A stretch of DNA of 50,607 nucleotides, taken from positions 1-50,607 of the IMG/VR virus record IMGVR_UViG_3300010400_000025; one strand, 5' to 3'. Numbering within the stretch: position 1 is the stretch's first letter; each line of letters opens with the position of its first letter. The DNA is from a virus. The notes under the pieces are model-generated. The model saw nothing but the letters and a program-made list of their open reading frames with translations, was not told where the DNA came from and searched no databases. This document shows positions 1-8,390 of the stretch, piece by piece. A program made the translations under genes and the position numbers.

Positions 1-1057
1 CGAAGCTGGCGGCGACGAAGCTGGTCGTGGCGATCTGCGCCGTGTTGGTGCCTGGCGGCGCCACGGGCGCCGTCGGCGTGCCGCTGAAGGCCGGACTGTC
101 CTTCGGCGCCAACAGCGCGTCGTTGGCCTTGACGAAGGCCGTGGTGGCGATCTGGATCGAATTGTCGCCGAGCGCAGGCGTCGGTGCCGTCGGAACGCCC
201 GTCAGCGCCGGGTTGTTGACCGGCGCGAAGAAACTCGAGTTCAGCCCGTCGAGCAGATCGGCGTCGAGGCCGGAGCCGACGCCATCGACGGTCTTGATCT
301 TGGTGAGCACATCGGCGGCGGTGTAGGCGGAAGCGGCCACAACGGGCTGCCAAGCGCCGTTGAGGCGCCCGTAGGACGTTCCGTTCGACGGCGCGTCGGG
401 TGTCATCGCGTTGGCGATGCCCTGCGCCCTGTCAGCCTCGGATTGGGCTCGATTCGCCTCCGTGGTGGCGGTCGCGGCGCTCGCCGAAGCGCTCGATGCG
501 CTGCCAGCGGCGGCTACTTTCGAGGAGTCGGCGGCGGTTGCCGACGCTGCGGCGGCATTTTTGGAGGTCGTGGCCGACGCGGCATCGGCTGCGGCACTCG
601 TTTCACTGGCCTTGGCGTTTGTTTCGCTGATTTTGGCCGCTGCCGCAGCATCGGTTGCCTCCTGGATGGGCGGATCGAAGTCGACGACTAGATTCCAGCA
701 TTGATTGGCCAGATCGGTCGCGAAAACGGTCGAAACGTGCTGCAAAATGCACTGGTAGAGCTTGTTGCCGTACCACACAGACTGCGGCGGCTTGTACTGG
801 ATGCCGGAAACCCACGGAGTGGGCGGCAGGACGCCGAGCGCCATGCCTGGATCGAGGCTCTCGGGCGTGACGATGCCGTTCTGGAGCTTGCCGTCGTCCC
901 TGCGAATGTCCGCCAGGGCGTCGATCGTGCCGTTCAGCGAGTTGGCGATGTTGTTGTTCTCGACGTCGACGCGGACGCCGGGAAGTGGCCGGGTCGGATT
1001 GGTGGTCTGGTAGCCAGCAAAGCTGAACGATGGCGTGTATTTCGTCGGGTTCGCCAT
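1..1057 (-). CDS. Tail fibre / receptor-binding protein, N-terminal part (continues at 50607)
   Basis: This is the first 352 codons of a protein of about 801 residues that runs off position 1 and resumes in frame at 50607. The ATG at 1057 lies 4 nt after the stop of the preceding gene. The N-terminus (MANPTKYTPSFSF) should anchor the fibre to the tail. Next comes an Ala/Ser/Thr-rich stretch at about residues 130-225, probably helical or coiled, then an LDGLN motif near residue 260 typical of fibre shafts. Repeats of the form PALTGxPTAPTxxxG..IATTAFV begin near residue 270 and continue across the junction. Such repeats are common in phage and prophage tail fibres. Host-receptor binding is inferred from the family. 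Confidence 0.85.
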   Translation of the reverse strand, partial: MANPTKYTPSFSFAGYQTTNPTRPLPGVRVDVENNNIANSLNGTIDALADIRRDDGKLQNGIVTPESLDPGMALGVLPPTPWVSGIQYKPPQSVWYGNKLYQCILQHVSTVFATDLANQCWNLVVDFDPPIQEATDAAAAAKISETNAKASETSAAADAASATTSKNAAAASATAADSSKVAAAGSASSASASAATATTEANRAQSEADRAQGIANAMTPDAPSNGTSYGRLNGAWQPVVAASAYTAADVLTKIKTVDGVGSGLDADLLDGLNSSFFAPVNNPALTGVPTAPTPALGDNSIQIATTAFVKANDALLAPKDSPAFSGTPTAPVAPPGTNTAQIATTSFVAASF

Positions 1058-1061
1058 GAGC

Positions 1062-1382
1062 TTACGGCACCGTGTTGTCGATGATGAGCCCGATCAATTC
1101 GAGCGAGGCGAGCAGGTTCTGCAACGCCGTTCCCGTGGAGATTTCGCCGGTCACCTCGATCGGCACGCCGGGTGGCGTGGGCGAGTCCGGCGCCGACGTC
1201 GGCAGCAGCACACCGTCGGCACGGAAGGCGACCTGGATGAACTCGATTGTTGCGGTGAGGCTGGCCGAGAGATTGGCGAGGTCGTTGTCGAGCGGCGTGC
1301 CGGGGAAGCTCTCAGTCCCTTGGAGGGACTGCTGATAGGCGGTGTAGTCGAATGAGATTTCCGGCAAGGGCGGATAGGCCAT
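1062..1382 (-). CDS. Small protein upstream of the tail fibre
   Basis: A 106-residue acidic protein starting MAYPPLPEISFDY. The ATG at 1382 has a good ribosome site (GGAGG, 7 nt upstream), which is why the longer frame from 1421 was not used. It is the first gene after the candidate promoter at 1406-1434 and ends 4 nt before the fibre gene, so the two are probably co-transcribed. A repetitive, Thr/Ser-rich and hydrophobic C-terminal half (TGTALQNLLASLELIG) suggests a structural or fibre-associated role. No family was recognised. It may be a virion adaptor, but that rests on position only. Confidence 0.75.
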   Translation of the reverse strand: MAYPPLPEISFDYTAYQQSLQGTESFPGTPLDNDLANLSASLTATIEFIQVAFRADGVLLPTSAPDSPTPPGVPIEVTGEISTGTALQNLLASLELIGLIIDNTVP

Positions 1383-1405
1383 GCGCAACCTCCGCGAGTT
1401 GAGCA

Positions 1406-1434
1406 GACATACGCCGGACATACATTTTCAGCAA
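1406..1434 (-). promoter_or_regulatory. Candidate minus-strand promoter with two GACATAC half sites
   Basis: On the minus strand TTGCTG (1434-1429) and TATGTC (1411-1406) are 17 bp apart. Read on the plus strand, two GACATAC copies start 11 bp apart (1406 and 1417), one helical turn, with the -10 inside one of them. The same half site forms the element at the other unit boundaries. It lies directly after the terminator at 1436-1463 and could drive the fibre and late genes. Confidence 0.5.
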
Positions 1435-1435
1435 G

Positions 1436-1463
1436 AAAAAACCCCGACGCTCGCGCCGGGGTT
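1436..1463 (-). terminator. Intrinsic terminator after the 1470-1706 gene
   Basis: On the minus strand a 7-bp stem (AACCCCG/CGGGGTT) with a GC-rich loop is followed by a run of six T. It begins 7 nt after the stop of the upstream gene. A short T-rich stretch on the other side may give weak activity on the plus strand too. Confidence 0.8.
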
Positions 1464-1469
1464 CCTTTT

Positions 1470-1706
1470 CTACTCAGCTGCCGCAGCAACTGGTGCCGGT
1501 TGGCGTGACGACCGCTTTGGCTTGGCCTGCTTAGCAGGCGGCTCGATCGGCGTGAAGTCCTTGATCGCCTTGGAGTAGCCGTCGATCCAGTGGCGTGCGC
1601 CCGCCGGGGTCGAGAAGCTCTTGAGCTTCCGGTTGTCAACGGTACGGACTTCGTATCGCGTTACCTTGACAGGCACAATCTTGACGCCACGATGTTTAAT
1701 CGTCAT
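1470..1706 (-). CDS. Small basic protein with its own promoter and terminator
   Basis: A 78-residue Lys/Arg-rich protein (MTIKHRGVKIVPVKVTRYEV) with an Ala/Pro-rich tail. The start has GGAGAA about 8 nt upstream. The middle (FSTPAGARHWIDGYSKAIKDF) looks like one small folded domain; the C-terminus (KPKRSSRQ) could bind nucleic acid. It is the only gene between the promoter at 1780-1808 and the terminator at 1436-1463, so it forms a single-gene transcription unit. This suggests separate control, for example expression in the prophage. No family recognised. Confidence 0.7.
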   Translation of the reverse strand: MTIKHRGVKIVPVKVTRYEVRTVDNRKLKSFSTPAGARHWIDGYSKAIKDFTPIEPPAKQAKPKRSSRQPAPVAAAAE

Positions 1707-1768
1707 AAGTCGTTCTCCACTCTTTTTAAGAACACTCGATGGTTACAGCCGTCGAGAGGCCGGAGCCC

Positions 1769-1814
1769 GGCCTGTTGCCATTATAGCACACATTGTGCAA
1801 TATTGCAACAGGCC
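1769..1814 (-). promoter_or_regulatory. Strong sigma70-type promoter inside nested palindromes
   Basis: On the minus strand TTGCAA (1808-1803) and a perfect TATAAT (1785-1780) are 17 bp apart. The spacer carries the palindrome GCACA-N3-TGTGC (1786-1798). The whole promoter is flanked by a perfect 10-bp inverted repeat (GGCCTGTTGC at 1769-1778, GCAACAGGCC at 1805-1814). This layout fits a repressor-controlled promoter, with the outer repeat either a second operator or an RNA hairpin. Confidence 0.7.
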
Positions 1815-1823
1815 GATTTCCGG

Positions 1824-2003
1824 CTATTTGTTCTTGGGGTGGACTTGACGCTCCATATGGTCGACCAGCCAAGGACGTATGTCCCTGCGGTCCCCGGCCC
1901 AGCCGAGCCCGCGCATGTTGGCGTCGTCGGGCTCCGGCGGCAGACACAGCTGTGGCTGGATCAGCCAGCGCCAAAAACGCCACAGGCGTTTTTGCACGCT
2001 CAT
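1824..2003 (-). CDS. Small Trp-rich hypothetical protein (59 aa)
   Basis: A 59-residue protein starting MSVQKRLWRFWRWLIQPQL; the N-terminus is amphipathic and basic, with four Trp in the first 20 residues, and may associate with membrane. The second half is polar (DDANMRGLGWAGDRRDIRPW). Its ATG overlaps the stop of the preceding membrane peptide as ATGA, so translation is probably coupled. No family recognised. It is the last gene of the 2457-1824 unit. Confidence 0.55.
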   Translation of the reverse strand: MSVQKRLWRFWRWLIQPQLCLPPEPDDANMRGLGWAGDRRDIRPWLVDHMERQVHPKNK

Positions 2004-2089
2004 CGCATCCACACGAACCAGATCGCCGGACCGACGATGATCAGCCCGACGAGCACGCCGAGCAGGAACGGCGCGATGTAGGGCCTCAC
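2000..2089 (-). CDS. 29-residue single-pass membrane peptide
   Basis: A GTG start at 2089 overlaps the stop of the preceding gene (GTGA), and its own stop overlaps the next ATG. The product is almost entirely one hydrophobic helix, FLLGVLVGLIIVGPAIWFVW, with a basic residue at each end. Size and shape fit phage micro-membrane proteins, such as holin-like or exclusion peptides, but function cannot be assigned. Coupled overlaps on both sides are the main support that it is real. Confidence 0.5.
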   Translation of the reverse strand: MRPYIAPFLLGVLVGLIIVGPAIWFVWMR

Positions 2090-2457
2090 GGCCTGGCACG
2101 CGAATGACGGCCAGGCTTCTTGAGCAGCTGCACCGCCTCTTCGTAGACCGTGAACTCGCTCGGCGGGAGATCGTCGGCCTCGGTCGGCCCGCCCCACGCT
2201 TCGCGGGGTTGCAGCACGCCGCTGTCATCAGCGGCATCGACGACGTCGATGTCGGCCTGCGGCGCCGGGGTTGCGGGGGGCGCAGTGGGCAGCGCCGCAG
2301 ACCGTGAAGGCTTTTCAACGTCGGCGGGCGATGCGGTCGGCCCGACGGCGTCGAGACGCGCCTTCAGTTCCCACCATTGCGGCAGCGAGGGGGCTTTGCC
2401 AGCAAGGGTGGAATCGAACGTGGCGAACCACGCTTTGAACTCTTCGAAGGTGAGCAT
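2086..2457 (-). CDS. Hypothetical protein, first gene of a small minus-strand unit
   Basis: A 123-residue protein starting MLTFEEFKAWFATFDSTLAG. Residues 1-40 look like a helical domain; 40-80 are Ala/Pro-rich linker; the C-terminus (EFTVYEEAVQLLKKPGRHS) is helical and basic. The ribosome site is weak, but frame and composition change sharply upstream of this ATG. It is the first gene leftward of the non-coding region 2461-3087 and is coupled to two tiny downstream genes. No family recognised. Confidence 0.6.
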   Translation of the reverse strand: MLTFEEFKAWFATFDSTLAGKAPSLPQWWELKARLDAVGPTASPADVEKPSRSAALPTAPPATPAPQADIDVVDAADDSGVLQPREAWGGPTEADDLPPSEFTVYEEAVQLLKKPGRHSRARP

Positions 2458-2489
2458 GACGTGATCACTGTACCACCACAGGGTGGCGC

Positions 2490-2537
2490 TGTCACGACAG
2501 ACGCGTGACATGCCAGTACTCTTGTATGGCATACAAG
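2490..2537. promoter_or_regulatory. Two operator-like palindromes upstream of the 2086-2457 gene
   Basis: TGTCACG (2490-2496) and CGTGACA (2504-2510) form an inverted repeat. CTTGTATG-G-CATACAAG (2521-2537) is a perfect 17-bp palindrome. Both contain pieces of the TGTGACATAC element found elsewhere in this genome. They sit 33-80 bp upstream of the leftward gene start. Confidence 0.5.
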
Positions 2538-2640
2538 GTTTTCGCGAAGCGAAATTTTGTACGCGCAGGGAGCTACCGCCACGCCTCGCGCGCCGGACTG
2601 CACGCCAGGGGGCGGGCCTGGGTGCGGACGCGCGCGCCGC

Positions 2641-2685
2641 GCACGCATTGCGTGCACAGCCGAAGGCTGTGCACGCAAGGCGTGC
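2641..2685. repeat. Long hairpin 1 (21-bp stem, one mismatch)
   Basis: Arms 2641-2661 and 2665-2685 pair at 20 of 21 positions around a GAA loop. The inner part, TGCACAGCC/GGCTGTGCA, is identical to the inner stem of hairpin 2 about 160 bp away. There is no T-tract, so it is not a classic terminator. Confidence 0.8.
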
Positions 2686-2800
2686 GCTATGCGAAGCGTA
2701 GAATCCTGAGCAGATTGTAAAACCATCCACGATATCAATGGCTTAGCGCTCGAGCCGGGTCCCGCTTGGGTCGGATCGCGCACACCTGGCGCGGGGACGC

Positions 2801-2841
2801 GCGCAGCGCCTGCACAGCCGGAGGCTGTGCAGGCGCTGCGC
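2801..2841. repeat. Long hairpin 2 (perfect 19-bp stem)
   Basis: Arms 2801-2819 and 2823-2841 are perfectly complementary around a GGA loop. It shares the inner stem TGCACAGCC/GGCTGTGCA with hairpin 1 but has different outer pairs, so the two are related, independently maintained structures. Confidence 0.85.
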
Positions 2842-3023
2842 GCTGCGCATGCCAAACCGAATCGATTCGGCGCCGCGCGGCGCCCGCTCGGCGCCGAGCC
2901 GGTCGGCGCGCCGATTCAAGCTGTTTTTGCTGCTATCATTTCGCTATGTATGCCGCAACGCTTGGCAGTTTTGCGCGATAAGCCTTTGATTTCATTGCGA
3001 AATAAAAATAATCAAAAAAGCGC

Positions 3024-3061
3024 TTGCATTTTGTCCTGAATTTCTATCCCTGTATGTCACA
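3024..3061 (+). promoter_or_regulatory. Promoter/operator region of the 3088-5934 operon
   Basis: The element TGTATGTCACA (3051-3061) lies 27 bp before the first ATG. Candidate -35/-10 pairs are TTGCAT (3024) with TATCCC (3045), 15 bp apart, or TTGTCC (3031) with TATGTC (3053), 16 bp apart. The second places the element over the -10, as at 30806. A further half site, GGACATAC, lies near 3076. Confidence 0.5.
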
Positions 3062-3087
3062 CAACAAACAACGAAGGACATACGGAA

Positions 3088-3858
3088 ATGACGACTCCCG
3101 AATTCAAATCGCCGACCATTCGCGCAGGCGGCAACGCTAAAACCATCAAGGGCGATAAGCGCGGCGATTATCAAACCGCGATCATGTATCTTGCGCCTGC
3201 CAGGATGGCAGGCGGCGCCAATATTTGCCCGATGGCGCAACTCGCGGGTTGCGATCCGACCCATGGTGGCGGCTGCCTAGTCAACGAAGGGCGCGCCCGT
3301 CTCATGTCGAGCATAAACATTGCGCGCATTGCCAAGACTCGCCGCTATCTCGACAACCGCGCGGCGTTTATCGCCGAGCTTGTCCGCGATCTAGAGCGTT
3401 TCGTCCGGCATACCGCACGCCATGGCGTGAAAGCAGCTGTGCGCCTTAACGGTACATCGGATATCCAATGGGAAGTAGCTCACCCGTGCGAACGCAATGG
3501 CAAGCGGTTTGCTTCGTTGTTCGAAGCTTTTCCCGAAGTCACGTTCTATGACTATACGAAGATTTACAAGCGCGCTTATCGCGCTTTGCCGAGCAACTAT
3601 TCGCTGACTCTGTCCTACAGCGAAGCAAACCAAGGCTATGCCGATGCGATCATGAAAGCGCATAGCGATACCGGGCTTAACGTGGCTGTCGTTTACCGCA
3701 CCAAAGCTTTGCGCAACGCCATGGTGATTAACGGCAATTTCCCGACCATCGATGGCGATCAAACCGACATGCGGTTTCTAGACCCGAAGGGAGTCATTGT
3801 TGGGCTCTATGCCAAGGGAACAAGCAAGCGCGACACAACCGGCTTTGTCATCGGCTAA
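3088..3858 (+). CDS. GP88-family (DUF7227-like) phage protein
   Basis: A 256-residue protein preceded by a modest GAAGGA site. It matches by memory the phage gene-product-88 family: an early YLAPARMAGGANICP segment, a Cys-containing CDPTHGGGCL stretch (about residues 55-64), the signature VRLNGTSDIQWE (about 118-129), FYDYTK (about 153-158), and an IDGDQTDMRFLDPKG...GLYAKG end. The family is widespread in phages; its biochemical function is unknown as far as I can say. It is the first gene of the plus-strand operon, directly behind an operator-like element, so it is probably expressed early or under repressor control. Confidence 0.8.
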   Translation: MTTPEFKSPTIRAGGNAKTIKGDKRGDYQTAIMYLAPARMAGGANICPMAQLAGCDPTHGGGCLVNEGRARLMSSINIARIAKTRRYLDNRAAFIAELVRDLERFVRHTARHGVKAAVRLNGTSDIQWEVAHPCERNGKRFASLFEAFPEVTFYDYTKIYKRAYRALPSNYSLTLSYSEANQGYADAIMKAHSDTGLNVAVVYRTKALRNAMVINGNFPTIDGDQTDMRFLDPKGVIVGLYAKGTSKRDTTGFVIG

Positions 3859-3918
3859 GCAGCGTTTCGGTTTGGCGCGGTGGCGCGCGCCTTTCCGAAG
3901 CTCTGGAAAGCTTCGTTA
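3859..3918 (+). repeat. Structured intergenic repeat, copy 1 of 3
   Basis: The layout is TTTCGG, an apical stem GGCGCG/CGCGCC, then CCGAAG closing the outer stem, then GAAGCT-CTGGAA-AGCTTC as a second hairpin. It lies between the 3088 and 3938 genes, directly before a GAAAGGAAATGCC ribosome site. Two further copies are at 4478 and 5521. Confidence 0.8.
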
Positions 3919-3937
3919 ACCCTTGAAAGGAAATGCC

Positions 3938-4474
3938 ATGATGTTTTTGAACCAAATTTGTGTTGTTCCCGCTGCATGGTCGACCGCTTGCGGTTTCGGC
4001 GATGCCGAGTTGCGCTTGCGCGTGATCTCAATTCGCAAGGCCAATGGCTGGACGTTCGCCAAAGTCGAGCACCCTAGCGGCTTCGGCGAGTGGATGGTTA
4101 ACGTTGAAATGCGTGACGCAACGTTGCTGACTGTCAACGTTGCCACAGCCGAAGATTTGGCCGCGCTGCGCAGCTACGCCATCGAATTCGGCCCTAAGTG
4201 GAAGGATAGCCTTGCGCTCGACTGGTACCACGCGCGCGCCCATGGCAAACGCGGCGCGATCCTGCACGGCGTGCGCAACAATTTCGGCCCGTCATGGCTT
4301 GACGCCTTCGAATTCGCCGACCCGATCGCCTGGCCGAACCTGCGCAAAGAAAAAACCCCCATGCTGCGCAACATGCGCGTGGCGCTGTCGCTGCACAGCT
4401 GGAACAATTCCGACGAGGAAAATATCCGCCTCGGCGCGGTCAAGCGCGAGCTTCACCGTCGCGGGACCTGGTAG
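3938..4474 (+). CDS. Hypothetical phage protein (178 aa)
   Basis: The ATG at 3938 follows GAAAGGAA; a TTG at 3923 in the same frame is less likely because the ribosome site lies inside it. The protein begins MMFLNQICVVPAAWSTACGFG. It has a beta-rich N-terminal half (LRLRVISIRKANGWTFAKV) and a Trp-rich middle (FGPKWKDSLALDWYHARAHGK). No family recognised. It is flanked on both sides by the structured repeat, so its mRNA segment could be processed or regulated separately from its neighbours. Confidence 0.75.
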   Translation: MMFLNQICVVPAAWSTACGFGDAELRLRVISIRKANGWTFAKVEHPSGFGEWMVNVEMRDATLLTVNVATAEDLAALRSYAIEFGPKWKDSLALDWYHARAHGKRGAILHGVRNNFGPSWLDAFEFADPIAWPNLRKEKTPMLRNMRVALSLHSWNNSDEENIRLGAVKRELHRRGTW

Positions 4475-4477
4475 CGC

Positions 4478-4540
4478 GCAGCGCTTCGGTTAGGGCGCGC
4501 CTCGGCGCGCCACTTCCGAAGCTCTGGAAAGCTTCGCAAC
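4478..4540 (+). repeat. Structured intergenic repeat, copy 2 of 3
   Basis: Same architecture as copy 1: CTTCGG, apical stem GGCGCG/CGCGCC with a different loop, CCGAAG, then the GAAGCT/AGCTTC hairpin. The 3' core TTCCGAAGCTCTGGAAAGCT is identical to the other copies while apical loops differ. Confidence 0.8.
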
Positions 4541-4556
4541 ACAAGGAAAAACGCCA

Positions 4557-4793
4557 ATGCTCACCACCATCGACTCCCGCGTGTGCGCCACGCTCGCCGA
4601 GCTACAAGAAACGCTCGACCATTTCGCTGCGCTCGCGCAGCGCCACCCGTCGACCGTCTACCTGGTCGAAGGCCTGACCCTGCAGCTGGTCGAAAAGACG
4701 CTGACCGACGGTTCCACCGTGTTTGACATCCGCCTCGGCGCTGCGCCCGACGCTGACACTTGCCCCGTGTGCGGCCTGGAGCACAGCGCATGA
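4557..4793 (+). CDS. Small protein with a C-terminal CPVCGLEH motif
   Basis: A 78-residue protein (MLTTIDSRVCATLAELQETL) behind AAGGAAAAA. A helical N-terminus (ATLAELQETLDHFAALAQRH) is followed by strands (VYLVEGLTLQLVEKTL) and a final CPVCGLEHSA. One CxxC plus His could form half a zinc site, possibly completed by a partner. The same CxxCGLEH pattern recurs in the zinc-ribbon protein at 23269. The stop overlaps the next ATG (ATGA). Function unknown. Confidence 0.7.
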   Translation: MLTTIDSRVCATLAELQETLDHFAALAQRHPSTVYLVEGLTLQLVEKTLTDGSTVFDIRLGAAPDADTCPVCGLEHSA

Positions 4794-5035
4794 GCACGCA
4801 AAAGCCGTTCGAAGTGCACGTCAAGCGCTACCGCGATCAACACGCCTGGACCGTGTCCGAGCACCGTTCGATCATGGCCGCGATGACGTCGCTGCGCTCC
4901 ACCATATCGGGCCGCAAGCACCGCCTGCGCGACCTAGAGCAGGCGCACATATGGTGCGCTCGCGACAACCGCAACTATTCACTGCACCGCGCCGCCGAGC
5001 TTCACGCCGAAGGCTATTTCGAGGGAATCAACTGA
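4790..5035 (+). CDS. Small basic hypothetical protein (81 aa)
   Basis: It starts at the ATG overlapping the previous stop (ATGA) and ends overlapping the next start (TGATG). The sequence MSTQKPFEVHVKRYRDQHAW leads into a helical segment rich in Arg and His (RSTISGRKHRLRDLEQ). It is probably a soluble, possibly nucleic-acid-binding protein. No family recognised. The tight coupling on both sides supports it as a real gene. Confidence 0.65.
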   Translation: MSTQKPFEVHVKRYRDQHAWTVSEHRSIMAAMTSLRSTISGRKHRLRDLEQAHIWCARDNRNYSLHRAAELHAEGYFEGIN

Positions 5036-5262
5036 TGAGCACCACACTGCAACCCGGCGACCGCGTGCGCTACGCTCGCGCCTTCCTGCGCAACGTCCAT
5101 TGCCGCGATCCGCAACGCCTCACGCGCCGCGCCACCGTCGTGGCGATCGAGCCCGAGCTTCGGCCCAGAGGGCCGCGCCCTGTGGTCGTGCAATGGGACG
5201 ACGCCGATGGCGCGCGCCGCGTGCTGTCCTGCAACCTGGAGCGATTGACAACCCACCTGTGA
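5035..5262 (+). CDS. Small SH3/KOW-like hypothetical protein (75 aa)
   Basis: MSTTLQPGDRVRYARAFLRN followed by strands (ATVVAIEPEL, PVVVQWDDADG) resembles small beta-barrel proteins such as SH3- or KOW-type modules seen in many phages. It is coupled to the gene before it by TGATG and ends 2 nt before the operator-like element at 5265. The fold call is inference from the GDRVR start and strand pattern; function is unknown. Confidence 0.65.
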   Translation: MSTTLQPGDRVRYARAFLRNVHCRDPQRLTRRATVVAIEPELRPRGPRPVVVQWDDADGARRVLSCNLERLTTHL

Positions 5263-5264
5263 AC

Positions 5265-5279
5265 GTGTGACATACACAC
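5265..5279 (+). promoter_or_regulatory. Palindromic TGTGACATAC element
   Basis: GTGTG-ACATA-CACAC is a perfect 5+5 inverted repeat, one of the two best copies of the recurring element. A TTGACA at 5245-5250 lies upstream. It precedes the gene at 5311, so an internal, repressor-controlled promoter is plausible. Confidence 0.65.
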
Positions 5280-5310
5280 CAACCGCAACGCTCTTGAAAG
5301 GAGCCCTCTC

Positions 5311-5520
5311 ATGTCCTGGAAGCCCGAAGTGTTCGTCGACCGCAAGTGGAACCGCAACGGCCTGGTGTTCGCCACCGAAGCCGAAGCCCGCGCCAACGCG
5401 AGCGATCTCATGGATCGCTGGTTTGCGGTCGACGACAGCCGCGCCGTCGAAGTCGACGAGCCCGTTACCCACACCTACACCGATCGCCGCCTGGCGGCGA
5501 TCGAGCGCGAACACGCCTAG
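5311..5520 (+). CDS. Conserved small phage protein (69 aa)
   Basis: A strong AAAGGAG site lies 8 nt before the ATG. The protein MSWKPEVFVDRKWNRNGLVF continues as ATEAEARANASDLMDRWF. This pattern, in which RKWNxNGLVFATEAEA is followed by a DEPV segment, is familiar from many proteobacterial phages, where it is an uncharacterised small protein. It is the first gene after the operator-like element at 5265. Function unknown. Confidence 0.75.
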   Translation: MSWKPEVFVDRKWNRNGLVFATEAEARANASDLMDRWFAVDDSRAVEVDEPVTHTYTDRRLAAIEREHA

Positions 5521-5578
5521 CAGCGTTTCGGTTTGGCGCCTTCGGGCGCCCTTCCGAAGCTCTGGAAAGCTTCTCAAC
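5521..5578 (+). repeat. Structured intergenic repeat, copy 3 of 3
   Basis: TTTCGG, an apical stem GGCGCC-TTCG-GGCGCC with a stable TTCG tetraloop, CCGAAG, then the GAAGCT/AGCTTC hairpin, followed by GAAAGGAAATGCC as in copy 1. The apical stem sequence differs from copies 1 and 2 while pairing is kept. Confidence 0.8.
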
Positions 5579-5596
5579 CCGCGAAAGGAAATGCCA

Positions 5597-5833
5597 ATGA
5601 CCGTTATCAACCAGCCTGCCCCCTACGCCGTCCTGATCAACGCAACCTACGGGCCGACCGGCGAAACCTCGACCACCCGCTTCGGCAACTACCCGAGCGA
5701 GCGGGAAGCCCTGGCCGCGATCCGCGACAACGAGGACTATTGCACCAAGCACCGCATCAACACCCACAAGCGCGCCTACCGGCTGTTCAAGGCCGAGTGG
5801 ACTGAGTTGTTCGTCGGCGAGGTGACCGCATGA
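5597..5833 (+). CDS. Hypothetical protein (78 aa)
   Basis: The ribosome site GAAAGGAA supports the ATG at 5597 (an in-frame ATG at 5591 is alternative). The upstream part of the open frame overlaps the structured repeat and is not coding. The protein MTVINQPAPYAVLINATYGP is small, with a strand-rich N-terminus and a helical, basic C-terminal half (TKHRINTHKRAYRLFKAEW). Its stop overlaps the next ATG. No family recognised. Confidence 0.7.
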   Translation: MTVINQPAPYAVLINATYGPTGETSTTRFGNYPSEREALAAIRDNEDYCTKHRINTHKRAYRLFKAEWTELFVGEVTA

Positions 5834-5934
5834 TGCTCGCACTAGGCGTGAGCGTGTTCGTCACGCTCGCGCTGATCCAACTACCCTTCGCGCTGCTGCG
5901 CGAAGTCGAGCGCCGAACGCGGCGCCGCAAATGA
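5830..5934 (+). CDS. 34-residue single-pass membrane peptide
   Basis: The ATG overlaps the previous stop (ATGA). The sequence MMLALGVSVFVTLALIQLPF forms one transmembrane helix, followed by a strongly basic tail (LREVERRTRRRK), predicting a cytoplasmic C-terminus. It is the last gene of the plus-strand operon, ending 2 nt before the terminator. Function unknown. Confidence 0.6.
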   Translation: MMLALGVSVFVTLALIQLPFALLREVERRTRRRK

Positions 5935-5936
5935 GA

Positions 5937-5956
5937 GGGGGCTTCGGCCCCCTTTT
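5937..5956 (+). terminator. Strong intrinsic terminator of the 3088-5934 operon
   Basis: GGGGGC-TTCG-GCCCCC with a stable tetraloop, followed by TTTTCTTTT. It starts 2 nt after the last stop codon. Confidence 0.9.
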
Positions 5957-5987
5957 CTTTTGCCTGCTGTCGGCGTCGTGTCTGACG

Positions 5988-6140
5988 CTGCCTCACCTTG
6001 GGCGGAAATAATTCGGTCGTTAGTGCCATTGGTCTGCCCCACCACACCATTGTACCCCCTTCGGGGGGATACAAGGTGAGGCAGGGCGCAGACCTTGCGC
6101 CTCGCCCCACCTTTGCCCCACCTTGGCAAGGTGGGGCAAA
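5988..6140. repeat. Nested inverted repeats between convergent genes
   Basis: CTGCCTCACCTTG (5988-6000) and CAAGGTGAGGCAG (6072-6084) are a perfect 13-bp inverted repeat. It encloses a CCCC-TTCG-type hairpin near 6055-6068. A second perfect 13-bp hairpin (6112-6124 with 6128-6140, loop GGC) ends 3 nt before the stop of the minus-strand primase gene. The region probably blocks read-through from both sides. Confidence 0.7.
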
Positions 6141-6143
6141 CCG

Positions 6144-8390
6144 CTAATCGAAGACGCTTTTCGCTCTGACATACCAGCGCTTGTTTCGCTTCTTGTCGAG
6201 CAGCTGCACACGCTCCAAGATGCCACTCTTGACCCACTGTCCGATCAGCCTCTTGACCTGTGCCTTGTCGTCCGGCTCGGCGAGATCGAGATTGAGCGCC
6301 ATGGCGACGACATTGCCCACCCAATCGTCGCGCGCCTGGGCGTCCTCGCGCCACGGCTCGGCGCCGAGCACCTGCAGCACTGATGGGACGTCAGCCTTGG
6401 CGCCGTCACCGGACCCCACCGACCACGCCACCACCACCGCCACATGATCGCCCTCGCGCCAACGCGAGCTACCATCCGCAGCGTCCACCACCCCATTGCC
6501 CAGGTCGACATTGTCGAGCTTCAGCCATTCGGTTTCATCATCCACCCACGGCGCCAGGTTCGACGCCGCGTCGGTCACCCTGAACAGCGACCGATAGGCG
6601 GTCGTCAGCCCCAGCTGCTTGCCCTCTTTCTTCGTCATCCGCGCCAGCGCCCGCACAGAGCGCATCTTGGCGACCAGCGCCGATGCGCCTCGGGCGGCAT
6701 CGACCGATGCGTCAGGATCGCTTCCCTGGCTCGCCTTGCGGGCATGGTGCACGAACTCGATGCCGACGCCTGCCTGATCCGCCACCCTGATCCATTCGGT
6801 CATCACCATGTCGATGCCCGAATTGTTGTTCTCGGATATCTCATGCGAGCTAACAAACGGATCGATCACCAGGACGTCGATGCGCCGCGCCTGAAGCTCG
6901 GCGACCAACGCCGATATCAGCGGGTGCAGCAGCTTGACGCCGTTCTTGTCCTCGATCGCGGTGACCAGGCGCAGCGATCGACCGCTGTCGAGGAACAGCC
7001 GGTCGCCGATATCGGCGGGCTCGATCTTATGGCGCAGCATCGCCGCCGTGATGCGCCGCTGAAGCTCCTCCAGCGGGTCTTCGCCGTTGATGTACCAGAC
7101 CCGCAGCGTGCCCTTGGGCCGCATATGCGGCAGCAACGTCCTGCCGGTTGTCATCGCCAGCACGTCGACCGTGGTCAGGCTGCTCTTGCCGACCTTGCTC
7201 GGGGCGACGGTCATCGACGCGAAGCGCCGCACGATGTGCGTGCCATACAGGAAATCGCGCGGCGGGGTGGCGTCCGACGGCACATGCTGCCACGGCGTGG
7301 CGGCAACCATGGGTCCTTGCGCCTCGTCGGGGCCGAAGATGGATTCATATTCCGGCTCGACCTCGACCTCGGGGCTCTCGACGAACCATTGCTCGGCAAA
7401 GCCGGTCCAGCCCGCCTTTTCCGCCTGGTGGTAGATGTAGTCCGCCCCTAGCTCCCGTGCGCTCTCGATCGACGCGAAGACCCGGTGCGCTTTCTCCGTC
7501 GGCGCCTCGATGCCAGCCTTGTCGGTGAACTCCTGGAAGAGTTCCAGGCCGTCGCTGTAGTCGACCGCGCCGCGCAATGCGATGGCGATGTTGCGCCATT
7601 GGTCGTAGCCGATCACCGCCGGGTCGTTCGGGATAGCCCGCATCGCCTCGGCGACGAGCCGTGGGTCACCACGGAGCTTCTCGGGGGCAACTACCTTGCC
7701 GTCGCCGGTCTGCGTCCTGGCAGCCTCCGGTAGCTCGCTGCGCAGCTGCACCAGGAACGCATTGCGCTGCTCGATCGTGATGATCGTGAGTTCCTCACGG
7801 GGCGGCATCCCATCGGGCCAGCTGTACGGCTGCCTGGTCTGCGGATGCACGCCGCACGCCACGAACCATTTCGCCTCGCCCGCCAGGCTCTCAACCAATC
7901 CTGGCGCGAGCTTGCGCTCGCCGACCACGACCAGCTTGTGCTCGTTGTCGCGGAAGCGGACCTGGTCGTACCGCATCTCGGGCGGGCAGTTGTACGGCAG
8001 CAGCACCTTGGGCGGGCGCCCGATCCGCCTCGGCGCGGGGCCGAGCATCTCATGCGCGAGCCCCATGATGTGGCTCACCCATTTCGGCGTCAGCGTGTCG
8101 ATGTCGATGCCGGTCATGCCGGTGCCGTTGCAGCTGAAGCCGACGCTGGCGCCCATGGCGTGCCATAGCTCGATCGTCTCTGGCGTGGCCGTGAAGTCCT
8201 TCGACGCCTTGCCGATCCAGTCGCCGTTGATCAGCACGCCGGGGCGTTTTCCCGCGTTGCTGATGCCGCCTTGCGGGGGCACCACGGGCAGGAGATTATG
8301 GTAGCCAAGGTCCCAGCATCGCTGAAAATGGTTGATACGTGCGTCATTCGCGTTATGCTTGGACACAGGGTTCATCCACCCTTTTTGCAT
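6144..8390 (-). CDS. Primase-helicase (prim-pol / PriCT / RepA-like ATPase)
   Basis: A 748-residue multidomain replication protein. Residues about 20-220 resemble the bifunctional primase-polymerase domain, including GIDIDT near residue 94. Residues about 235-320 (DPAVIGYDQWRNIAIALRGA) match a PriCT-type primase C-terminal domain. The C-terminal half is a RecA-like hexameric helicase with Walker A APSKVGKSS near 395 and Walker B VLVIDPF near 505, followed by a HHARK sensor-like segment. It should prime and unwind at the phage fork with the polymerase at 11118. It is the last gene of the leftward replication operon. The start could also be the ATG at 8375. Confidence 0.85.
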   Translation of the reverse strand: MQKGWMNPVSKHNANDARINHFQRCWDLGYHNLLPVVPPQGGISNAGKRPGVLINGDWIGKASKDFTATPETIELWHAMGASVGFSCNGTGMTGIDIDTLTPKWVSHIMGLAHEMLGPAPRRIGRPPKVLLPYNCPPEMRYDQVRFRDNEHKLVVVGERKLAPGLVESLAGEAKWFVACGVHPQTRQPYSWPDGMPPREELTIITIEQRNAFLVQLRSELPEAARTQTGDGKVVAPEKLRGDPRLVAEAMRAIPNDPAVIGYDQWRNIAIALRGAVDYSDGLELFQEFTDKAGIEAPTEKAHRVFASIESARELGADYIYHQAEKAGWTGFAEQWFVESPEVEVEPEYESIFGPDEAQGPMVAATPWQHVPSDATPPRDFLYGTHIVRRFASMTVAPSKVGKSSLTTVDVLAMTTGRTLLPHMRPKGTLRVWYINGEDPLEELQRRITAAMLRHKIEPADIGDRLFLDSGRSLRLVTAIEDKNGVKLLHPLISALVAELQARRIDVLVIDPFVSSHEISENNNSGIDMVMTEWIRVADQAGVGIEFVHHARKASQGSDPDASVDAARGASALVAKMRSVRALARMTKKEGKQLGLTTAYRSLFRVTDAASNLAPWVDDETEWLKLDNVDLGNGVVDAADGSSRWREGDHVAVVVAWSVGSGDGAKADVPSVLQVLGAEPWREDAQARDDWVGNVVAMALNLDLAEPDDKAQVKRLIGQWVKSGILERVQLLDKKRNKRWYVRAKSVFD

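What the first reader, a model, noticed from the sequence alone, without database searches (positions are those of the whole stretch)
3859..5579. Three copies of a structured intergenic element in one operon
Three gene junctions carry the same 55-60-nt layout: outer TTTCGG/CCGAAG stem, a GC apical stem, then a GAAGCT/AGCTTC hairpin followed by the ribosome site. The 3' core is nearly identical while the apical stems differ but still pair (GGCGCG/CGCGCC twice, GGCGCC/GGCGCC once), a compensating pattern that supports RNA structure. It could be an RNase processing site, an mRNA stabiliser or a protein-binding element setting the dose of each gene.
Basis: partly seen in the sequence, partly recalled or inferred. 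Interest (0 to 1): 0.75.

Follow-up and report, generated by a model that had tools for sequence, protein, structure and literature searches.

The report
Two-state RNA hairpins between phage genes
The three repeated stretches between genes of this phage belong to an RNA element not listed in Rfam, found here in otherwise unrelated phages up to 17 times in one 35-kb contig, that can fold in two mutually exclusive ways and probably separates neighbouring genes on a shared messenger RNA.

Summary
The three copies are real (3860-3914, 4479-4535, 5521-5573), each between a stop codon and the next ribosome site. One correction: the "outer stem" and the "3' hairpin" share the strand GAAGC, so only one can form at a time, a long hairpin H1 or a short hairpin H2. 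The same element occurs in other IMG/VR phages that share no protein with the window except terminase: marine contigs with 1-3 copies and larger contigs with up to 17. A covariance model of H1 built without window sequence finds the three window copies (E 0.001-0.008). Of 55 hits to an H1-only model, 53 carry H2 just downstream, including compensatory triples (GUUCA/UGAGC/GCUCA, GUUUC/GAAAC/GUUUC). A sequence-agnostic scan of carriers gave 68 hits, 1 in reversed control. Computed folding makes H2 rare in intact RNA (median probability 0.001) and near-certain once the 5' strand is cut off or covered. Favoured mechanism: RNase III-type cleavage in H1, after which H2 caps the new 5' end and the apical hairpin caps the upstream 3' end. 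Main rival: a switch that senses the ribosome at the upstream stop codon. No Rfam match; no experiment.

The parts
3088..3858 (+). GP88-family gene (PF17338), first gene of the operon; its stop codon TAA 3856-3858 precedes copy 1
   Evidence: Pfam GP88 E 1.9e-42
3860..3905 (+). Copy 1, long hairpin H1: CAG 3860-3862, GUUUCGG 3864-3870, UUU, apical GGCGCG 3874-3879 / CGCGCC 3886-3891, UUU, CCGAAGC 3895-3901, CUG 3903-3905
   Evidence: fold; R1 hit 3864-3901 E 0.0054
3897..3914 (+). Copy 1, alternative hairpin H2: GAAGCU 3897-3902 / AGCUUC 3909-3914, loop CUGGAA; shares GAAGC with H1
   Evidence: sequence; H2 conserved in relatives
3927..3940 (+). SD AAGGA and start codon ATG 3938-3940 of the next gene (3938-4474)
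   Evidence: sequence
4479..4526 (+). Copy 2, H1: CAG 4479-4481, GCUUCGG 4483-4489, apical GGCGCGC 4494-4500 / GCGCGCC 4505-4511, CCGAAGC 4516-4522, CUG 4524-4526; upstream stop TAG 4472-4474
   Evidence: fold; R1 hit 4483-4522 E 0.0079
4518..4535 (+). Copy 2, H2: GAAGCU 4518-4523 / AGCUUC 4530-4535
   Evidence: sequence
4543..4559 (+). SD AAGGA and start codon ATG 4557-4559 of the next gene (4557-4793)
   Evidence: sequence
5521..5564 (+). Copy 3, H1: CAG 5521-5523, GUUUCGG 5525-5531, apical GGCGCC 5535-5540, loop UUCG, GGCGCC 5545-5550, CCGAAGC 5554-5560, CUG 5562-5564; upstream stop TAG 5518-5520
   Evidence: fold; R1 hit 5525-5560 E 0.0012
5556..5573 (+). Copy 3, H2: GAAGCU 5556-5561 / AGCUUC 5568-5573
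   Evidence: sequence
5585..5599 (+). SD AAGGA and start codon ATG 5597-5599 of the next gene (5597-5833)
   Evidence: sequence
5933..5956 (+). Intrinsic terminator at the end of the operon; the three copies therefore probably lie on one transcript

Best explanation
Each copy is a two-state RNA module that fills the gap between the stop codon of one gene and the Shine-Dalgarno site of the next. In intact RNA the long hairpin H1 forms: a base helix, an internal loop and an apical hairpin, about 20-26 positions per arm. H2, which ends 3-6 nt before the SD in most copies (7-12 nt in the window), uses the 3' base strand of H1 and can form only when the 5' base strand is removed or covered. Shown by computation: both helices are kept by compensatory change, and the exchange is clean. 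Inferred: a host double-strand RNase (RNase III type) cuts H1 at the internal loop, as in T7 early mRNA. The freed GAAGC then folds into H2, which gives the downstream mRNA a hairpin about 3 nt from its new 5' end, while the apical hairpin stays at the 3' end of the upstream mRNA. One long transcript is thus divided into separately capped gene units. My confidence is about 0.95 in the two-state structure and 0.45 in this mechanism; the score below is for the mechanism.
For: H1: covariation score 0.524 against 0.167 in shuffles in 22 multi-copy elements, 11 of 17 pairs changed on both sides; the outer stem, not used for selection, 0.364 against 0.170; window plus marine copies 0.340 against 0.131. 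H2: 53 of 55 H1-only hits have the exact complement of the H1 3' base strand just downstream, with compensatory triples; L187 has AAUUC/GAAUC/GAUUC. Sequence-agnostic scan: 68 hits against 1 in reversed control. Folding: median H2 probability 0.001 intact, 0.999 after a cut at the internal loop. H1 has the size and the internal loop (3x3, or 4x3 in the multi-copy type) of the T7 R1.1 RNase III site, a 60-nt RNA with a 4/5-nt internal loop (PMC6121014). No RNase III gene and no common protein other than terminase was found in the carriers, which fits a host enzyme.
Against: No cleavage or transcript-end data exist. The fixed register of the upstream stop codon is explained better by the ribosome rival. 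In L163 only 2 of 4 copies have H2. S. meliloti RNase III prefers longer dsRNA than the E. coli enzyme (PMC6121014), and the host here is unknown.
Confidence: 0.45

Rival explanations
1. Ribosome-termination sensor. A ribosome stopped at the upstream stop codon covers the H1 5' base strand up to the foot of the apical hairpin, frees GAAGC and lets H2 form; H1 returns when the upstream gene is not translated. The choice sets initiation at the downstream gene, or protects the junction from cutting.
For: The first base of the upstream stop codon lies -2 to -12 nt from the H1 base strand in 65 of 72 copies, 43 of them at -4 or -5, so a stopped ribosome would reach about the foot of the apical stem (footprint size from general knowledge). 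Masking the 5' strand gives H2 with median probability 0.997.
Against: H2 does not pair with the SD, so its effect on initiation is not obvious. The register could simply reflect compact packing after the stop codon. In the window the stop codon is farther away (-7, -8, -11).
Confidence: 0.27
2. Binding site for a protein (translational operator, antitermination factor or sequence-specific RNase) that reads the conserved base GUUUC/GAAGC.
For: The base sequence GUUUC/GAAGC is conserved far more than the apical stems.
Against: The base does change, as compensated triples. No common phage protein except terminase between the window and five records searched whole or nearly whole; GP88 is absent from the other carriers. 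A host protein is not excluded.
Confidence: 0.13
3. DNA-level element: recombination cassette that shuffles genes (like PeSLs of T4-type phages) or a hairpin promoter for an N4-type virion RNA polymerase.
For: H2 resembles in outline the stem-loop promoters of N4 (PMC4496689); the element recurs as a module in unrelated phages.
Against: N4 promoters need a 3-nt loop; H2 loops are 4-8 nt. No N4 virion RNA polymerase found in carriers, although that search had no positive control. G-U pairs and two competing helices point to RNA. No sigma-70 promoter-like site in the window region.
Confidence: 0.06
4. Recently duplicated intergenic sequence without function.
For: The 28-nt 3' cores of the window copies are 86-100% identical.
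Against: Conservation in unrelated phages with compensatory changes in both helices.
Confidence: 0.02

Closest known systems
RNase III sites of phage T7 early mRNA (R1.1 and others)
   Same: Irregular hairpin of about 20 bp with an internal loop, at junctions of phage genes (PMC6121014; T7 junctions folded)
   Different: T7 1-7500 has no H1/H2 triple and is not matched by R2 or R3; cleavage of the present element is not shown
SAS/ESAS repeats of Cluster K mycobacteriophages
   Same: Many copies per genome just upstream of start codons of non-structural genes; ESAS contain inverted repeats (PMC3203893)
   Different: SAS is a fixed 13-bp sequence GGGATAGGAGCCC at the start site and ESAS 17-bp repeats; no shared-strand alternative hairpin is described there
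PeSLs of T4-type phages
   Same: Repeated intergenic stem-loops in phage genomes (cited in PMC4503421)
   Different: PeSLs are promoter-terminator motifs; the present copies have no promoter-like site and no U tract
5'-terminal stem-loops that stabilise mRNA (ompA, papA)
   Same: Under the best explanation H2 would act the same way (references listed in PMC3997798)
   Different: Those hairpins are present from the start of transcription; H2 would appear only after cleavage

Membership tests
The two-state element family defined here | H1: base helix GUUUC/GAAGC or a compensated equivalent, internal loop, apical hairpin | tested here: met
   R1, built without window sequence, hits the three copies at E 0.0012-0.0079
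The two-state element family defined here | H2 strand exactly complementary to the H1 3' base strand, then SD and start codon | tested here: met
   all three window copies; 53 of 55 elsewhere
RNase III processing signals of T7 type | Hairpin of about two helical turns with an internal loop at a gene junction | tested here: met
   arm lengths mostly 20-26 positions; 4/5 internal loop of R1.1
RNase III processing signals of T7 type | Cut by RNase III in vivo at the internal loop | not testable with these tools
   no RNA data
RNase III processing signals of T7 type | T7 sites themselves match the element models or the triple scan | tested here: not met
   no hit with R2 or R3 and 0 in the scan of T7 1-7500
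SAS/ESAS (Cluster K mycobacteriophages) | 13-bp SAS GGGATAGGAGCCC at the start site | tested here: not met
   absent from the three junction sequences
N4 virion RNA polymerase promoter hairpin | 3-nt hairpin loop | tested here: not met
   loops of 4-8 nt in 74 copies; requirement from PMC4496689
Intrinsic terminator | GC-rich hairpin followed directly by a U run | tested here: not met
   scan finds none at the three copies on the + strand
Any Rfam 15 family | Match at or above gathering score | tested here: not met
   no element match; loose search of the region gives only chance-level hits

The most novel reading that the evidence does not exclude
A general device of phage mRNA architecture: at many junctions of an operon, cleavage and/or the terminating ribosome flips one shared strand from H1 to H2, so that each gene's message is processed and capped by a self-contained RNA module that works in unrelated phages with host factors only. 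A variant with a roughly 100-nt insert of conserved sequence may carry a sensing domain.
Probability: 0.3. Interest if true: 0.86.

Novelty: new variant of a known kind. Interest (0 to 1): 0.74.

Why it matters
It is a compact RNA element with strong covariation, repeated at many gene junctions of phages that share almost no proteins, and absent from Rfam 15. How phages give the genes of one long operon separate levels and lifetimes is little known outside models such as T7 and T4. The element makes this directly testable with a small reporter construct, and if the two-state model holds it would be a useful insulator between genes of synthetic operons.

Tried and rejected
Rfam at a loose threshold: only chance-level hits. 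Exact core in genome and viral collections: none. blastn of element or operon in INPHARED phages and of one copy in PLSDB: nothing convincing. Hairpins after the GP88 gene in rhizobial phages (L001-L005, L082) looked like relatives at first: same position and length, but a conserved GUCCUCCAGC loop, no H2, and no hit with R1 or R3, so they are not counted. GP88 as cognate protein: not found in the other carriers. T7-type RNA polymerase: none found, but the control did not ring either. Seven triple-scan hits in L001-L082 are AT-rich or promoter-like sequence or lack the motif.

Full report
What is in the window. The window is a whole IMG/VR virus record of 50,607 bases with integrase, DNA polymerase, primase/helicase-like, gp2.5-like ssDNA-binding and terminase genes, so it is a phage, apparently temperate. 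A + strand operon of eight mostly small genes (3088-5934) starts with a GP88-family gene and ends at an intrinsic terminator at 5933-5956. Three of its junctions carry the element.

Anatomy. In each copy the RNA can form H1, CAG.G(U/C)UUCGG - UUN - GC-rich apical hairpin - NUU - CCGAAGC.CUG, or H2, GAAGCU-CUGGAA-AGCUUC. Both use GAAGC, so they exclude each other.

Relatives. A pattern with the H1 base found four viral contigs of the same design, two of them with two exact copies. Further patterns and a structural scan gave more copies in these and in L140, L172, L183, L187 and L163. A scan for H2 plus SD only, without asking for H1, led to phages with many copies. Whole-record searches with the H1-only model R2 then gave 17 copies in a 35-kb contig, 14-15 in 93.6 kb, 11 in 64.8 kb, 10 in 57.7 kb and 6 in 20.8 kb (reverse-strand echoes left out). 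Apart from terminase and one marginal 62-residue match, window proteins match nothing in five of these records searched whole or nearly whole and in part of a sixth, and nothing in the marine contigs.

Is the window a member? R1 was built from ten sequences, none from the window, without the 3' strand of H2. In the window it finds the three copies at E 0.0012, 0.0054 and 0.0079; the only other hit is the reverse strand of copy 2 at 0.68. R3, built from window, marine and L187 copies, finds the multi-copy elements at E down to 5e-7. R2, built from multi-copy phages only, does not find the window copies, so the window lies closer to the marine type. E-values of these models are rough.

Covariation of H1. 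In 22 multi-copy elements aligned without gaps, 96% of cells pair and 11 of 17 pairs change on both sides, more than in any shuffle. The apical stem and part of the base were used in choosing these rows; the outer stem was not, and it covaries too. Its 3' strand lies in the loop of H2, so H1 really extends over H2. Window plus marine copies and L187 score 0.340 against 0.131.

Covariation of H2. Of 55 H1-only hits, 53 have the exact complement of the 3' base strand just downstream, where roughly 1% would be expected by chance (my estimate, about 12 positions in 1024), and all 55 are followed by SD and start. When GAAGC changes, the partners change with it: UGAGC with GCUCA, GAAAC with GUUUC, GAAGU with ACUUC, GGAGC with GCUCC, AGAUG with CAUCU, GAGCA with UGCUC, GAAUC with GAUUC. 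The sequence-agnostic scan for such triples gives 68 hits in carriers and 1 in reversed sequence; 0 in T7 1-7500 and in N4 1-50000, 0 (2 reversed) in 877 kb of bacterial contigs, and 7 AT-rich or motif-free hits in 684 kb of GP88 relatives. Copies within a phage are related, so hit numbers are not independent events; the distinct triples are the safer measure.

Two-state behaviour. Over 74 copies the H1 state is on average 3.6 kcal/mol better than the H2 state with the apical stem kept. H1 has a U at the second base position, pairing with G, in 64 of 74 copies, where H2 has C-G. Median H2 probability is 0.001 intact, 0.999 after a cut at the internal loop and 0.997 with the 5' strand masked. 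The upstream stop codon starts -2 to -12 nt from the H1 base strand in 65 of 72 copies; H2 ends 3-6 nt before the SD in 54 of 72.

Mechanism. A conserved H2 that hardly forms in intact RNA must act when the 5' strand is gone or covered. Cleavage of H1 does the first, a terminating ribosome the second. I prefer cleavage because H1 has the size and internal loop of T7 R1.1, a site between T7 genes 1.0 and 1.1 that RNase III cuts in vivo (PMC6121014), and because H2 would then lie about 3 nt from the new 5' end, where stem-loops are known to protect mRNA (references listed in PMC3997798). The stop-codon register speaks for the ribosome model. Both may be true together. Nothing here is experimental.

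Known kinds. No Rfam family matches the element. The nearest kinds are T7 RNase III sites, which lack H2, and the SAS/ESAS repeats of Cluster K mycobacteriophages, which also mark many gene starts but are defined by fixed sequence. I call it a new variant of a known kind, intergenic hairpins of phage mRNA, with a strand-sharing design that I have not seen described. The literature search covered open-licence papers only, so an earlier description elsewhere cannot be excluded.

Limits. All carriers are metagenomic or uncharacterised viral records; no isolate carrier was found. Pattern searches favour GAAGC/GCTTC types, so spread and diversity are underestimated. Hosts are unknown.

Noticed in passing
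window 2639-2687 and 2798-2843: Two long near-perfect hairpins (23 and 21 bp arms) with related cores TGCACAGCC(G/g)AAGGCTGTGCA-type, in the sequence upstream of the operon; role unknown.
   Followed up: no
L001-L005 and L082, just after the GP88 gene: A single hairpin of about 20 bp with conserved loop GUCCUCCAGC, containing the anti-SD-like UCCUCC, while the stem changes with compensation (GGCG to AGUG). Possible loop-SD pseudoknot; a different element, no H2.
   Followed up: partly
L323 13660-13830, L350 and L333 (reverse strand, near 881 and 4216): In three multi-copy phages one copy has its H1 base opened by a larger insert with conserved stretches (UGUCCCUGUAAG, CGUAGGGGAUCGGCUGGAG, UUGACCUACCUCUA), like a folded domain inside the element; no Rfam match.
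   Followed up: partly
L020, L034, L039 (reverse strand, near 2618, 7483, 2564): TTGACA-like box, then a palindromic hairpin, then a TATA-like box: looks like a promoter with an operator inside, in GP88-carrying viral contigs.
   Followed up: no
L163 reverse strand near 280, 536, 1073 and 1860: A carrier with four H1 copies of type UUCUUCG...CGAAGCAAUC, of which only two have the H2 strand; perhaps an early or reduced form of the element.
   Followed up: partly
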